Shown one piece after another: positions 42,250-50,794 of a stretch of 58,246 bases of DNA. Every line of letters begins with the position of its first letter. Positions within the stretch are counted from its first letter, which is position 1. Under the pieces are notes generated by a model. The model was given only the letters and a program-made list of their open reading frames with translations. It had not been told where the DNA came from and did no database searches. The translations under genes and the position numbers were made by a program. The stretch is from a virus, in the IMG/VR virus record IMGVR_UViG_3300048586_000912, positions 1 through 58,246 of that record. One strand, given 5' to 3'.

Positions 42250-42540
42250 TCATGCAGCCTCCTCTCGCGCCGTCGGGGCGTCGTCATTGGCGGGCTTGGG
42301 CGGCAAAGGGCGCGGTTCGGGGCGGGGAATGTCGCCGGGCCAGTCGGCGCCGTCAGGCCAATTGGCAGAGAACCATTCCAGGGCGCGGCCGAGCCGCCGG
42401 GCGCCGATCTCGCTGCCACCCCGCAAGGCGGCCAGCCGCTTCCCATCGGTGAAGCAACGCGACGAAACGGTCGCCTCGGCGAGGCCGGTGGCGGCGCAAT
42501 AGCGCTCTGCGAGACGCAGGAGTTGGGCAATGGCATCCAT
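42250..42540 (-). CDS. Cro-like regulator, first gene of the leftward operon
   Basis: 96 residues. MDAIAQLLRLAERYCAATGL-AEATVSSRCF is a helix-turn-helix, followed by GARRLGRALEWFSANWPDG and a proline-rich tail. It is transcribed divergently from the S24 repressor from a promoter that contains operator O1, the classic place for a Cro-type protein. Confidence 0.65.
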   Translation of the reverse strand: MDAIAQLLRLAERYCAATGLAEATVSSRCFTDGKRLAALRGGSEIGARRLGRALEWFSANWPDGADWPGDIPRPEPRPLPPKPANDDAPTAREEAA

Positions 42541-42549
42541 GACGATGGC

Positions 42550-42579
42550 ACAATGCGGTACATATACCGCACCTGTCAA
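42550..42579 (-). promoter_or_regulatory. Leftward promoter with operator O1
   Basis: On the minus strand TTGACA (42579-42574) is followed after 18 bases by CATTGT (42555-42550). The spacer holds a perfect palindrome GCGGTA-TATG-TACCGC (42555-42570), so a bound repressor would block RNA polymerase. Confidence 0.65.
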
Positions 42580-42593
42580 GCACCCGGACTACG

Positions 42594-42609
42594 ACGGTAC
42601 ATTTACCGC
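42594..42609. promoter_or_regulatory. Operator O2 upstream of the repressor gene
   Basis: ACGGTA-CATT-TACCGC, one mismatch from the palindrome of O1. Its centre is 39 bases from that of O1, about four helical turns, which would suit cooperative binding. It lies 38 bases before the repressor ATG and could mediate autoregulation. Confidence 0.65.
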
Positions 42610-42646
42610 TAAAGCCCCCGCTCTGGCGCGGTCATATTCCCACGCC

Positions 42647-43408
42647 ATGAATGCCGCCGACCTCCTGTCCCGCATTGATCGCCGCCTGCTGGCGCTCGGG
42701 TTGTCCGAGCGCGCGGCGAGCCTGAAGGCGCGCAACAAGCCGGACATCATCCGCAACATCCGGCGCGCGGTCGAGAAGTCCGAGCCTTATGACCCCCGCT
42801 CCGGCACCATCGAGGCGCTGGCCCCGGTGCTCCGCACCACCACGGAGTGGCTCGTGCACGGGACGGGGCCGGAGGAGATTTCCGGCGCCGAGGCCGCAAG
42901 GGGCGTGCTCCAGATCGCCGAGCGCCGCGCCCGCAAGGCAGCGCGCGGCGCGGCAGATGCTCATGCAATTCGCGAGATCGAGATCCACGCCGGCATGGGC
43001 GGCGGCGGCGTGCCCGCGCGCGAGATGGCGCAGATCGTCGGCCGCGAAAGCTACGCGGCCGACGCCGTCCGCGGCTATTGGGTGTTTCCCGACCACGCGT
43101 TGCGCGCGCTCGGCCTTGATCCGAGCTTTGCGGATATCGTGCCGGGTGTCGGCGATTCCATGGAGCCGGACATCCGCAGCGGCGACTGGTGCGTGATTGA
43201 TCGGCGCCATCGCGTGCCCTCGCCGGATGGCATCTATGCGCTTTGGGATGGCTTCAGCGTCGTGTTCAAGTCGCTGCAACTGATCCCCAACAGCGACCCA
43301 GTGAGCGTACGGATCATCTCCAAAAACACCGCCTATGAGAGCTACGAGCGCGCGCTTGAAGAGGTGGCCGTGATCGGCCGCGTGGTCAGCCTGGTTCGGG
43401 CGCTCTAG
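42647..43408 (+). CDS. CI-type repressor with S24 (LexA-like) peptidase domain
   Basis: 253 residues. An N-terminal helical DNA-binding domain (LGLSERAASLKARNKPDIIRNIRRA; TTTEWLVHGTG) is followed by the S24 domain: VGDSMEPDIRSGDWCVID contains the catalytic Ser and the Lys lies in VVFKSLQL. It should keep the prophage silent and be inactivated by RecA-stimulated self-cleavage; an Ala/Gly-rich hinge (ARGAADAH, GMGGGGVP) may hold the cut site. The 3' end overlaps the convergent WYL-TerB gene by 23 bases. Confidence 0.9.
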   Translation: MNAADLLSRIDRRLLALGLSERAASLKARNKPDIIRNIRRAVEKSEPYDPRSGTIEALAPVLRTTTEWLVHGTGPEEISGAEAARGVLQIAERRARKAARGAADAHAIREIEIHAGMGGGGVPAREMAQIVGRESYAADAVRGYWVFPDHALRALGLDPSFADIVPGVGDSMEPDIRSGDWCVIDRRHRVPSPDGIYALWDGFSVVFKSLQLIPNSDPVSVRIISKNTAYESYERALEEVAVIGRVVSLVRAL

Positions 43409-44255
43409 GCGGCAGGCAGGCGCGCAGCCGCGCCGCCCTTCCTTCCTCCAGGCGCGTCTTGGCGCCATCCGCCAGCATCAGCGCATCCATTGTGGCGATG
43501 AACCGCGCCGCCTCCGCACGCCCCATGCGGCCGATGGCCGTGCGCGTGTCGGCGAAGATCGGCCTTTCATTGCGAATCCATATCCGCGCCGCCTCTCGGC
43601 TCCAGGCCTGCGGCCCCTGCCGGCCGGCAGCTGCACGAAACGCCACCCAATCCAGCAGGACCTCGATCTCGCTTTCTGACATCTCGCCATCGGCGGCCGC
43701 CAGCCAGATGAGCCCGCGCAGGCCGCCGCGCGCGCGTTCCATCACCCGTTCGTGCGTCTTGGGTATCGAAAGGCCGGCATAAGGATCGGGCGGCGCGGGC
43801 CAGCCTAAAATTTCGTCCCGCCGCGCCACTGAAACTCCTGGATAGGCCGCGAAATATGCCGCTGCCGCAGCGACGGCGCGGCCGGAGGGCAGTTCGGAGA
43901 GCCTCAACATTCGGTCGGCGCGAAACGTTCTTTCCTCATGCCGCAAGCCGCAATAGGCCGTCACATAGAGGATGCCGGTATAGGCTTCTCTCTGCACGGA
44001 CAGGACACGGATGCTGCGCGAGGTTACTTCGCCGAGAGCGTCGGCATACTCGATCCAGTGCGTAAACCCCGCGCGCGGCGGCGGGCGGGCCGGCGATACC
44101 ATTCGGGCGTCTTGCCGCGGTTCGCGCCGCTCCTCTCGCCGGGGCCGCTCGGGCTCGAACGGCAGCGCCTCGTGTGATCGCGCACGCTTTGGCCGCCATC
44201 GCCATGCGGCGACCGCGACGCCGACGACGATAGCCGCGAAGAGCAGAAACTCCAT
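43386..44255 (-). CDS. Membrane-anchored WYL-TerB protein
   Basis: 289 residues. A membrane segment (FLLFAAIVVGVAVAAWRW) at 3-20 leads through a basic, charged linker to a WYL-like domain at about 65-128 (THWIEYADALGEVTSRSIRV ... ERTFRADRMLRLSEL) and a TerB-like helical domain at about 175-280 (LIWLAAADGEMSESEIEVLL). WYL domains sense ligands and TerB domains occur in stress and phage-response systems. It forms an operon with the membrane protein gene upstream. Placement beside the repressor recalls the rexAB genes of lambda. A lysogenic-immunity role is inference. Confidence 0.7.
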   Translation of the reverse strand: MEFLLFAAIVVGVAVAAWRWRPKRARSHEALPFEPERPRREERREPRQDARMVSPARPPPRAGFTHWIEYADALGEVTSRSIRVLSVQREAYTGILYVTAYCGLRHEERTFRADRMLRLSELPSGRAVAAAAAYFAAYPGVSVARRDEILGWPAPPDPYAGLSIPKTHERVMERARGGLRGLIWLAAADGEMSESEIEVLLDWVAFRAAAGRQGPQAWSREAARIWIRNERPIFADTRTAIGRMGRAEAARFIATMDALMLADGAKTRLEEGRAARLRACLPPRAPEPG

Positions 44256-44257
44256 GA

Positions 44258-44674
44258 TCAGCGCCGCCGGGACGGAACCTCGGATTTGATCTTCGCCCAG
44301 TCCGAATCGGCTGGAGTATCCACCGCTCGCGCAGGAGGTGGCGGCGGCGGCGCTGGGCTGGCGATGGGGGCCTTGACGCTGGCATTCACCCGCGCGACGG
44401 CGGAAGCCACGTCCTTCAAGCCGCACTCGATATTGAACCCGACATAGATGATGGACGCGGAAACCAGCGCCGCCAGATAGAGAACCGCGCTCAGGATCTG
44501 ATGGATGACCGTCGGGCCGAAGAAGGTCAGGCCTGCGGCGACCAGCAGCACGATGGACACCGCTATCGAAATGGCGCTGCGCGCCATGATCGAGAGGATG
44601 AACGGCGCAGCGGCGGCGAGAGCCGCGATGACAAAGAGAAGCTGCCCAAAAACCGCCGCGCCGGGTGTTCCCAT
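44258..44674 (-). CDS. Multi-pass membrane protein, partner of the WYL-TerB protein
   Basis: 138 residues with three or four hydrophobic segments (VFGQLLFVIAALAAAAPFIL; ISIAVSIVLLVAAGLTFFG; ILSAVLYLAALVSASIIYVG) and a cytoplasmic tail of eight consecutive prolines then DTPADSDWAKIKSEVPSRRR. A strong GGAGGGG precedes the ATG. It is three bases from the WYL-TerB start, so the two probably act together at the membrane. Confidence 0.7.
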   Translation of the reverse strand: MGTPGAAVFGQLLFVIAALAAAAPFILSIMARSAISIAVSIVLLVAAGLTFFGPTVIHQILSAVLYLAALVSASIIYVGFNIECGLKDVASAVARVNASVKAPIASPAPPPPPPARAVDTPADSDWAKIKSEVPSRRR

Positions 44675-44748
44675 CTGCCCCTCCAGATGATGGACGACAT
44701 GAAGACACGCAGCGATTGCGCGCGCAACTGAGGAACGCCGCTCGATAT

Positions 44749-44764
44749 GCGGTATTTGTCCCGC
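44749..44764. promoter_or_regulatory. Operator O3
   Basis: GCGGTA-TTTG-TCCCGC, one mismatch from the consensus half-site. Flanking AT on each side extends the symmetry. It lies 29 bases from O4 and between the divergent membrane-protein gene and rightward operon, so it could also repress the leftward gene pair. Confidence 0.6.
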
Positions 44765-44772
44765 ATATTGAC

Positions 44773-44800
44773 TTGACGCGGTACATATACCGCGTCTAAG
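44773..44800 (+). promoter_or_regulatory. Rightward early promoter with operator O4
   Basis: TTGACG (44773-44778), 16-base spacer, TCTAAG (44795-44800). The spacer is occupied by the perfect palindrome CGCGGTACATATACCGCG (44777-44794). The arrangement mirrors the leftward promoter at 42550-42579. Confidence 0.65.
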
Positions 44801-44830
44801 GTTCGCCCATCACACCCGATGGGGACACCA

Positions 44831-45229
44831 ATGCAGCTTCCCAACCAGATCACCGACGCCGAGGCCGCCGGCCTCATGGCGATCCTCGCGCCGCTCAAGC
44901 CCCGGCTCGCCGATCTTGAAGGCAACATCGACAACATCGAGGACGCGGCCCGCGTGCTGGCGGACCTCACCGCCGCATCGAACCAGGCGGAGACGCTGCG
45001 CGACGCCATCGACGCCGACACGCACGGCGCCGAGCACGCGCAGGCCGAGGACCTTGCGGCGCACCAGGAGGGGCTCCTTTCCGAGGAGCAGACCGCAGCC
45101 GCCCTCCACGCTTTGCATGCGCTGCGCGCGCTGGAGGCGCTGAAGACCGAGGTGGACGCCGCCCTTGCCGCCTTCCGCGCCGCGCTCGCCGCCGCCGCGG
45201 CTGCCGAGCAGACCAAGGACGCCGCGTGA
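44831..45229 (+). CDS. First gene of the rightward operon, coiled-coil protein
   Basis: 132 residues, Ala/Glu/Leu-rich and probably all helical (LADLEGNIDNIEDAARVLAD; RALEALKTEVDAALAAFRAA). The ATG at 44831 follows GGGGA by six bases and is preferred to one at 44819. It is 30 bases from the promoter and so made immediately on induction. Function unknown. Confidence 0.65.
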   Translation: MQLPNQITDAEAAGLMAILAPLKPRLADLEGNIDNIEDAARVLADLTAASNQAETLRDAIDADTHGAEHAQAEDLAAHQEGLLSEEQTAAALHALHALRALEALKTEVDAALAAFRAALAAAAAAEQTKDAA

Positions 45230-49122: not shown

Positions 49123-49371
49123 ATGACCTCCGCCGCCACTCCCAGCGCCCGCGCCGAGCACCTCGAGCGCCGCCGCCGCGACGTGGCGGCGGACTATGCC
49201 AAGGCCGCGCGCCGGCATGCCCCGCGCGCGGCCCTCGCCACTCGGCTGGTGCGCGCCACCTGCGACGTGCTGCGCGAGGAAATCCGCGCCGCCAGGCGCA
49301 AGGCCCAAGCCCGCCGCATCGACCGCGAGGCCGAGGCCATCACCGCCGATCTGTTCGGAGAGCGGCCATGA
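49123..49371 (+). CDS. Small arginine-rich protein
   Basis: 82 residues, highly basic and helical (AEHLERRRRDVAADYAKAARRH; ARRKAQARRIDREAEAIT). Probably nucleic acid-binding. AAAAGGACA precedes its ATG. No family recognised. Confidence 0.6.
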   Translation: MTSAATPSARAEHLERRRRDVAADYAKAARRHAPRAALATRLVRATCDVLREEIRAARRKAQARRIDREAEAITADLFGERP

Positions 49372-49682
49372 CCGACGACCGCGCGCTCTGCGCCGCCCGC
49401 ATCGCGGCGCTGCAGGATGTCTCCTTCCAGCTGGGCGCGCGGCACAAGTCGTTTGCCCGCTCGGTGAAGCACAAGGCGCCGGCCGAGCTCTCCCCAGCCC
49501 AATACGCCCACGTCGCCCGCCTTTGCTGGCGCTACCGGCGGCAACTGCCGGCGCACCTGGTGCCGCCAGCCGATCCGGACGCCGGCCAGCGCGCGCCGCT
49601 GCGGGCCGCCTCACCGCTGGTGGTGGTCTCCAATCCGCCGCCGCCCGACGACCTCTTCACCCTCATGGGGACAAGAAAATGA
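49368..49682 (+). CDS. Small early protein before dnaN
   Basis: 104 residues. TDDRALCAARIAALQDVSFQ and ELSPAQYAHVARLCWRYRRQL are helical; the tail is proline-rich and ends DDLFTLMGTRK, whose DLF tripeptide is similar to clamp-binding motifs. It overlaps dnaN by four bases. Confidence 0.55.
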   Translation: MTDDRALCAARIAALQDVSFQLGARHKSFARSVKHKAPAELSPAQYAHVARLCWRYRRQLPAHLVPPADPDAGQRAPLRAASPLVVVSNPPPPDDLFTLMGTRK

Positions 49683-50794
49683 AGCTCACCGCCGAGCGCG
49701 ACGCGCTCCTCTCCGCCGTCGAGCGGGCCGCCCGCGTGATCGAGCGGCGCAACACCATCCCCGTGCTTGCCACCATGAAGGTGGTGGCGGAGAAGGGCCG
49801 CCTGGTGCTCACGGGCACGGACCTCGACATGGAGGTGACCACCACCTGCCCGGCCGAGGTGGCGCAGGCCGGCGGCGCCGCGATGCCGCTCACCGCCGTG
49901 GAGTTCCTGAAAAAGCTGCCGGCCGGCGCGCAGGTGGAGATCACGTCCGAGAAGGGCCGCGCCACGCTCAAGGCGGGCCGCAGCCGCGCCACGCTCAACA
50001 CGCTGGACGTGGAGGATTTCCCGGAACTGCCCGCCGTGGCCGGCGAGGCGGCCGAATTCCCGCTCGCGGCCTCCAGCCTCGCCGCCATGATCGACCGAGT
50101 GAGCTTCGCCATCTCCACCGAGGAGACGCGCTATTACCTCAACGGCATCTATCTGCATGGCGCCGCCTGCGAGGACGGCCCGCTGCTGCGCGCCGTGGCG
50201 ACGGACGGCCACCGCCTGGCGCTGCACAACATCCTCGCACCCGAGGGCGCTTCGCCCATGCCGGGCGTGATCGTGCCGCGCAAGGCGGTCGCCGAGATCG
50301 CCCGCCTCATCAAGCCGTTGGGCGACGAAAAGGTGACGCTGCGCGTGAGCCCGACGCGGCTCTCGCTGACCGCAGGCGTCACCACGCTGGCCACCAAGCT
50401 CATCGACGGCACCTTCCCGGACTATGACCGCGTCATCCCCAAGGACGGCGAGTGCCGCGCCCTCGTGGACGCGGCGGCGCTGGACGCAGCCGTTGCGCGG
50501 GTCTCCACCGTCTCCGGCGAGCGCGGGCGGGCGGTGAAGTTCGCCTTTGCCGCTGGCCTCCTCACCCTCTCCGTCACCAACCCCGACACGGGCGAGGCGC
50601 GCGACGAGGTGGAGGCCGAGTGGTCCGCCCCGCCGCTGGAGATCGGCTTCAATGCCGGATACGTGGCCGACATCCTCGGCGCTTTGCCCGGCAAGGCCGC
50701 GCGGCTCGCCATGAAGGATCCCGGCTCCCCCTGCCTCATCACCGCCGAGGGCGACACCGCGTCGCTCTTCGTGCTCATGCCGATGCGGGTGTGA
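49679..50794 (+). CDS. dnaN: DNA polymerase III beta subunit (sliding clamp)
   Basis: 371 residues, full length for a three-domain clamp. KLTAERDALLSAVERAARVIERRNTIPVLATMK at the start, LTGTDLDMEVTT, TRYYLNGIYLHG ... AVATDGHRLAL in domain 2, and the C-terminal DTASLFVLMPMRV are diagnostic of DnaN. It tethers the polymerase to DNA. Since the host has its own dnaN, this is a phage copy that may recruit host polymerase III to phage forks. Confidence 0.95.
   Translation: MKLTAERDALLSAVERAARVIERRNTIPVLATMKVVAEKGRLVLTGTDLDMEVTTTCPAEVAQAGGAAMPLTAVEFLKKLPAGAQVEITSEKGRATLKAGRSRATLNTLDVEDFPELPAVAGEAAEFPLAASSLAAMIDRVSFAISTEETRYYLNGIYLHGAACEDGPLLRAVATDGHRLALHNILAPEGASPMPGVIVPRKAVAEIARLIKPLGDEKVTLRVSPTRLSLTAGVTTLATKLIDGTFPDYDRVIPKDGECRALVDAAALDAAVARVSTVSGERGRAVKFAFAAGLLTLSVTNPDTGEARDEVEAEWSAPPLEIGFNAGYVADILGALPGKAARLAMKDPGSPCLITAEGDTASLFVLMPMRV

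What the first reader, a model, noticed from the sequence alone, without database searches (positions are those of the whole stretch)
43386..44674. Membrane protein plus membrane-anchored WYL-TerB protein inserted at the immunity locus
A two-gene operon lies between the S24 repressor and the rightward promoter, pointing back toward the repressor. One product has three or four membrane segments and a polyproline tail; the other has an N-terminal anchor, a WYL-like ligand-sensing domain and a TerB-like domain. Position next to the repressor is where lambda keeps rexAB. The set looks like a lysogen-expressed sensor-effector that could abort infection by other phages; I know of no described system with this exact pair.
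Basis: partly seen in the sequence, partly recalled or inferred. Interest (0 to 1): 0.75.

Follow-up and report, generated by a model that had tools for sequence, protein, structure and literature searches.

The report
Membrane-anchored WYL-TerB protein beside prophage repressor
A dormant phage carries, right beside its master repressor and inside its repressor-binding sites, a membrane-tethered protein that looks built to sense nucleic acid; relatives sit in the same kind of place in many unrelated phages, which makes it a candidate defence gene against rival phages, although no function has been tested.

Summary
Two minus-strand genes, 2 nt apart, lie between an S24 repressor and the rightward early operon: a 138-aa protein with 3-4 membrane segments and a polyproline tail, and a 289-aa protein with an N-terminal anchor, a WYL domain (Pfam, above cut-off) and a TerB-like domain (fold-level match).

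They sit in a cargo slot. In the window and in related prophages, repressor and cargo are bracketed by the phage's own operators, while repressor, operators and cargo differ between phages. WYL-TerB genes face S24 repressors tail to tail in several other prophages. More broadly, 14 of 24 families of phage WYL proteins, mostly membrane-anchored, lie within 1 kb of a repressor-type domain (3.2 expected, P 3e-9). Several follow CI directly in isolated P2-like phages, an interval that is a published antiviral hotspot in K139-like phages.

The two-gene pair is not conserved: only the WYL-TerB gene recurs. The orientation is opposite to lambda rexAB and lysogen expression is not shown.

Best reading: a lysogen-expressed, membrane-tethered nucleic-acid sensor that blocks or aborts superinfection. 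It works like a Rex system but is not shown to be a RexAB homologue. Function is inferred, not shown.

The parts
44258..44674 (-). Gene A: 138-aa small membrane protein, 3-4 membrane segments, polyproline C-terminal tail; first gene of the cargo operon
   Evidence: ORF and hydropathy; homologue about 51% identical over 70 aa in another prophage, L140
43386..44255 (-). Gene B: 289-aa protein: N-terminal membrane helix (2-19), disordered linker (21-56), WYL barrel (about 62-128), TerB-like helical domain (about 166-279)
   Evidence: Pfam WYL above cut-off; AlphaFold2 models; Foldseek/VIA matches to PafBC, CapW, BrxR, DriD and to 2h5n/2ou3
42647..43408 (+). S24-type (LexA/CI-like) prophage repressor, convergent with gene B; ORF open from 42530 but the left operators lie before 42647
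   Evidence: Pfam PF00717 E 8.1e-11; phrog_4 E 3.4e-25
42250..42540 (-). Cro-like small regulator, divergent from the repressor
   Evidence: 58% identical to the gene at the same place in prophage L057; Cro role by position
42553..42571 (.). Left operator 1, ATGCGGTACATATACCGCA
   Evidence: Repeat family D1; operator role is inference from position and symmetry
42592..42610 (.). Left operator 2
   Evidence: Repeat family D1, 74% to reference
44747..44765 (.). Right operator 1, 73-91 nt upstream of gene A start
   Evidence: Repeat family D1, 79% to reference
44776..44794 (.). Right operator 2, over the presumed rightward promoter
   Evidence: Repeat family D1, 89% to reference; promoter position is inference (no promoter called by the scan)
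44819..45229 (+). First gene of the rightward early operon, right edge of the cargo slot (ORF open from 44819; an internal ATG at 44831 is the more likely start)
   Evidence: ORF; gene with the same position and start context in L022 and L024

Best explanation
The two genes are cargo in an exchangeable slot of the prophage immunity module, bracketed by the repressor's own operators. Gene B is tethered to the inner membrane by its N-terminal helix and faces the cytoplasm. Its WYL barrel probably binds single-stranded nucleic acid, such as replication or repair intermediates of an incoming phage. Binding is passed to the TerB-like domain and so to the membrane, and in this phage perhaps to the small membrane protein gene A; the cell then stops supporting the infection. 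Shown by computation: gene structure, domains, fold, slot, repeats that look like operators, and recurrence of the WYL-TerB gene next to repressors. Predicted: the anchor. Inferred only: ligand, membrane output, lysogen expression, and the superinfection-blocking role.
For: WYL fold and membership. The best solved relatives bind ssDNA or act in phage defence: PafBC, DriD, CapW, BrxR. PafB arginines R204, R208, R211 and R214, needed for ssDNA binding (PMC11804915), match R105, R109, R112 and R115 with the same spacing; PafB R181 probably corresponds to R80. TerB-like domain. Cargo slot bracketed by operator-like repeats in the window and relatives with different cargo. WYL-TerB convergent with S24: L057, L102/L174, L175, L196 and, less certainly, L179. 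Phage WYL families lie near repressors far more than chance: 14/24 versus 3.2, P 3e-9; in genomes 5/29 versus 0.05 within 1 kb of S24. In PV94, Mannheimia 587AP1 and Yersinia 201.16 the WYL gene directly follows CI, and the cI-int interval of K139-like phages is a published antiviral hotspot (PMC9122126).
Against: No functional or expression data. No promoter for the operon was recognised, and the right operators lie 73-120 nt upstream of gene A, so the repressor might shut the operon off in the lysogen instead of leaving or turning it on. The L057 homologue has no membrane anchor. Some phage WYL genes lie far from any repressor (L086, L095; L060 in tail genes). WYL-TerB proteins also occur as chromosomal genes with no visible phage context (L058, L077), so the architecture alone does not mean defence.
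Confidence: 0.5

Rival explanations
1. Lysogeny or induction modulator: the WYL domain senses ssDNA from DNA damage, the same signal that activates RecA, and adjusts the decision to leave lysogeny through a partner, without acting on other phages.
For: Known WYL proteins PafBC and DriD sense ssDNA in DNA-damage responses (PMC11804915); the gene lies next to an S24 repressor, a type that RecA usually makes cleave itself, and such genes lie next to repressors generally. Abstracts in the library report that lambda RexA also acts on the lysis-lysogeny switch (PMC11077077, listed).
Against: No DNA-binding HTH domain and a predicted membrane tether; cargo in the slot is exchanged between close relatives, unlike a core part of the switch.
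Confidence: 0.2
2. Two unrelated cargo genes that sit together by chance: gene A changes the envelope or excludes phage at entry, and gene B is a separate stress protein.
For: Each gene family occurs without the other: gene A homologue alone in tail genes (L140), WYL-TerB alone, and chromosomal WYL-TerB genes.
Against: The 2-nt spacing points to co-expression; WYL genes concentrate at repressors instead of being spread over the genome.
Confidence: 0.2
3. The operon is repressed in lysogens and acts early in lytic infection, for example as an anti-defence or host-takeover protein.
For: The right operators lie just upstream of gene A, between it and the early operon; in L024 and L022 the operators lie about 35-50 nt upstream of the cargo start.
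Against: In P2-like phages the related WYL genes directly follow CI on the same strand, where the lysogen would be expected to express them with CI.
Confidence: 0.1

Closest known systems
Lambda RexAB and RexAB-type systems (Sbash, CarolAnn, P. putida RexABpp)
   Same: Accessory genes in the immunity region next to the repressor; a candidate nucleic-acid sensor together with a small multi-pass membrane protein (RexABpp: PMC12894663).
   Different: Convergent with the repressor instead of following it on the same strand; the sensor is WYL-TerB and itself membrane-anchored; the pair is not conserved; no Rex match was seen in the family scans.
WYL regulators PafBC, DriD, CapW, BrxR
   Same: WYL fold and basic residues.
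   Different: No HTH domain; a membrane helix and disordered linker take its place.
WYL-TerB and other WYL fusions (Makarova 2014, PMC4012209)
   Same: WYL-TerB fusion was listed there; chromosomal relatives here carry TerB just below the Pfam cut-off.
   Different: The passages read do not describe membrane-anchored forms in prophage immunity slots.
Prophage cI-int antiviral hotspot of K139/phiO18P-like phages (Rousset 2022, PMC9122126)
   Same: Variable cargo next to the repressor; anchored WYL genes of P2-like phages sit in that interval.
   Different: Here the slot lies between repressor and rightward operon in other alphaproteobacterial phages; in that paper's text WYL appears only in the reference list.
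Shango (TerB-like protein, ATPase, helicase)
   Same: TerB-like domain in phage defence (PMC10250203).
   Different: No helicase or ATPase gene in this operon.

Membership tests
WYL domain (PF13280) | Score above Pfam's curated cut-off | tested here: met
   24.7 bits against 21.8
WYL domain (PF13280) | Sm/SH3-like barrel with conserved basic groove residues | tested here: met
   Barrel 65-128, Foldseek top hits all WYL proteins, R80/R105/R109/R112/R115 correspond to PafB R181/R204/R208/R211/R214
TerB-like domain | Pfam TerB (PF05099) score | tested here: not met
   No TerB match in gene B; relatives of the same architecture fall just below the cut-off
TerB-like domain | TerB-like all-helical fold | tested here: met
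   Domain alone, pLDDT 90.2; 2h5n Z 8.2 and 2ou3 (tellurite resistance, COG3793) Z 7.3, next 4.8. Foldseek E-values are weak (best 0.16), and that 2h5n belongs to the TerB-like superfamily is from memory
RexAB-type exclusion system | Located in the immunity region next to the repressor | tested here: met
   Between two operator pairs, adjacent to the S24 repressor
RexAB-type exclusion system | Downstream of cI on the same strand | tested here: not met
   Opposite strand, tail to tail
RexAB-type exclusion system | Homology to RexA and RexB | tested here: inconclusive
   No Rex match seen in Pfam, PHROGs or PADLOC; whether those libraries hold Rex models was not checked
RexAB-type exclusion system | Both proteins needed; phage exclusion in the lysogen | not testable with these tools
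   Needs experiment
WYL transcription regulators (CapW/BrxR/PafBC/DriD) | N-terminal winged HTH | tested here: not met
   N-terminus is one hydrophobic helix and a disordered linker
Shango | Adjacent ATPase and helicase genes | tested here: not met
   Operon holds only genes A and B
Any catalogued defence system (PADLOC) | Whole-protein match to a system component | tested here: not met
   Only the WYL part matches WYL models of DRT/CRISPR accessory genes

The most novel reading that the evidence does not exclude
Membrane-tethered WYL proteins are a widespread and undescribed class of prophage immunity proteins: nucleic-acid sensors held at the inner membrane, carried next to the repressor in unrelated temperate phages, with interchangeable relay domains (TerB-like, BRCT, zinc ribbon) that turn sensing of foreign DNA into a block of infection.
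Probability: 0.35. Interest if true: 0.8.

Novelty: new variant of a known kind. Interest (0 to 1): 0.58.

Why it matters
Genes beside prophage repressors include known defence genes such as RexAB. If membrane-anchored WYL proteins are one more such class, they would give a defined, testable set of candidate defence genes, some in isolated phages where they are annotated as hypothetical protein or DNA ligase. They would also extend WYL domains from transcription factors to membrane-bound sensors.

Tried and rejected
Close relatives of gene B by direct back-translated search in viral and genome collections: none; found only through an alignment of WYL motifs. DNA-level relatives in annotated phages: none. 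Conserved A+B pair: rejected. Gene A relatives in phages, plasmids and viral contigs: none; in genomes only L140 is a clear match, L141 and L143 are more distant, and most other matches are weak. Promoter recognition for the cargo operon: nothing found. A first alignment of nine WYL proteins was too diverse to search with. A narrower WYL-TerB search returned only the L102 contig again. K139 orf2 as a possible named WYL relative: papers read did not settle it. Structure matches of the full model to non-WYL Sm-like proteins were taken as shared barrel fold only.

Full report
What is there. The window is an IMG/VR virus record of 58,246 bases. Between an S24 repressor on the + strand (42647-43408; S24 E 8.1e-11, phrog_4 E 3.4e-25) and the rightward early operon (from about 44831) lie two genes on the - strand. 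Gene A (44674-44258, 138 aa) has three to four hydrophobic segments and a polyproline tail. Gene B (44255-43386, 289 aa) starts 2 nt after gene A's stop codon and ends 23 nt inside the repressor gene, tail to tail.

Domains. Gene B scores above Pfam's cut-off for WYL. Pfam does not call TerB in it; DUF533 appears at E 0.073. AlphaFold2 on eight sequences gives an N-terminal helix (2-19), a disordered linker (21-56), a five-stranded barrel (65-128) and a helical bundle (166-279), mean pLDDT 73.9. Foldseek's best matches for the whole model are WYL proteins: PafBC, CapW, BrxR, DriD. The bundle folded alone has pLDDT 90.2; its two best structural matches are 2h5n (Z 8.2, rmsd 3.7, 106 aligned) and 2ou3, a tellurite-resistance protein of COG3793 (Z 7.3, rmsd 5.6, 114 aligned), and the next is 4.8. 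Foldseek's own E-value for 2h5n is weak (0.16). A profile of nine such domains also ranks 2h5n first among chains that are not designed proteins (E 0.0047). Chromosomal and phage proteins of the same WYL-TerB layout score 20.7-23.8 bits for Pfam TerB against a cut-off of 24.4.

Ligand inference. In PafB, arginines R181, R204, R208, R211 and R214 are needed for ssDNA binding (PMC11804915). Gene B has R80, R105, R109, R112 and R115, with the same 4-3-3 spacing for the last four; R105 is not kept in the L102 homologue. Binding of nucleic acid is therefore likely but not shown.

The slot. The window carries four copies of ATGCGGTACATATACCGCA-like operators, two left of the repressor and two right of gene A. 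Relatives with closely related flanking genes have a different repressor, different operators and different cargo in the same place: a SWIM-type protein in L021/L022 (Xanthobacter tagetidis) and a 146-aa secreted protein in L024. A more distant relative, L025, has a 222-aa membrane protein there. In L022, L024 and L025 repeats also bracket repressor plus cargo. Prophage L057 has the same Cro-like gene (58%), operators GCGGGACATATCCCGC with the same 29-bp spacing on the right, and a WYL-TerB gene convergent with its S24 repressor, but without a membrane anchor.

Recurrence. A full-length phage homologue, L102, is 36% identical (E 2.6e-35), anchored, convergent with its S24 repressor, and bracketed by operator-like repeats. 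A survey of 397 genomes of the same order found 29 WYL-TerB matches, 5 of them within 1 kb of an S24 domain (0.05 expected, P 2e-9; 4 and P 2e-7 without the genome that carries L102's gene). The query alignment held proteins from such slots, so it favours phage forms. L175 is a clear anchored homologue with an integrase-like gene nearby; L196 is convergent and unanchored; L179 is less certain because gene calls there are poor; L201 has a Cro-like gene, repressor, a small 75-aa membrane protein and WYL in one direction between matching operators.

The wider family. A search for phage WYL motifs returned 43 viral loci in 24 families, most with an N-terminal membrane anchor, some with TerB-like, BRCT or zinc-ribbon regions. 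Fourteen families lie within 1 kb of an S24, HTH_3 or CI-repressor match, against 3.2 expected by random placement on the same contigs (P 3e-9). In Vibrio phage PV94, Mannheimia phage 587AP1 and Yersinia phage vB_YenM_201.16 the WYL gene directly follows the CI repressor gene, and the cI-int interval of K139-like phages is a published hotspot of antiviral systems (PMC9122126). The papers searched do not describe membrane-anchored WYL proteins at prophage immunity loci; most subscription journals are not in that library.

The pair. Gene A has one clear homologue (L140, about 51% over 70 aa), a lone gene on the opposite strand among tail genes, with no WYL neighbour. L057, L102/L174 and L175 have WYL-TerB without a gene A. 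The pair is therefore specific to this phage on present evidence.

How it may work. Position, exchangeable cargo, recurrence at repressors and a nucleic-acid-type sensor tethered to the membrane fit a gene that protects the lysogen from other phages, comparable in logic to RexAB, where a DNA-binding sensor triggers a membrane effector (PMC12894663). It is not a RexAB member by the tests run: orientation differs and no homology was seen. Because the right operators lie close upstream of gene A and no promoter could be recognised, it is open whether the repressor turns the operon on, off, or neither. The cargo promoter would lie where lambda has PRM relative to PR, which is why lysogen expression is plausible, but this is analogy. 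The main rivals are a modulator of induction and two independent cargo genes.

Noticed in passing
L022:8872-9532 and L022:8243-8875: Same slot in the Xanthobacter tagetidis prophage holds a SWIM-type zinc-finger gene pointing back at the repressor (two overlapping frames, maybe frameshifted) and a zinc-ribbon membrane protein following the repressor.
   Followed up: partly
L024:9124-9564: Secreted 146-aa protein is the cargo in the slot of another close relative.
   Followed up: no
L075:8299-9267: Prophage slot with a 119-aa anchored WYL protein and a secreted 200-aa protein without Pfam match, convergent with an S24 repressor.
   Followed up: partly
L127:2971-3489 and L106:7773-8465: WYL-BRCT genes (anchored in L106) directly after CI in P2-like phages; in some RefSeq records annotated as DNA ligase, probably because of the BRCT part.
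   Followed up: partly
L063:6790-8970: Single protein fusing WYL, TerB, RNase T-type exonuclease and BRCT domains in a genome of the Xanthobacter tagetidis family.
   Followed up: no
L086:7650-8810 and L088:7650-8831: Anchored WYL-TerB proteins with a C-terminal zinc ribbon, in L086 beside a terminase-like gene, about 9 kb from any repressor match.
   Followed up: no
L067:8217-8669, L072:8053-8526, L080:8229-8678: About 150-aa chromosomal WYL proteins, in L067 between a ZapA-like gene and a 5-formyltetrahydrofolate cyclo-ligase-like gene; function unknown.
   Followed up: no
L140:8101-8412: Lone gene A homologue on the opposite strand among tail genes of another prophage.
   Followed up: yes
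window 49196-50794 (+): Phage-encoded beta sliding clamp (DnaN-like) by sequence, in the C-terminal part of this ORF; similar genes in L022, L024 and L025.
   Followed up: no
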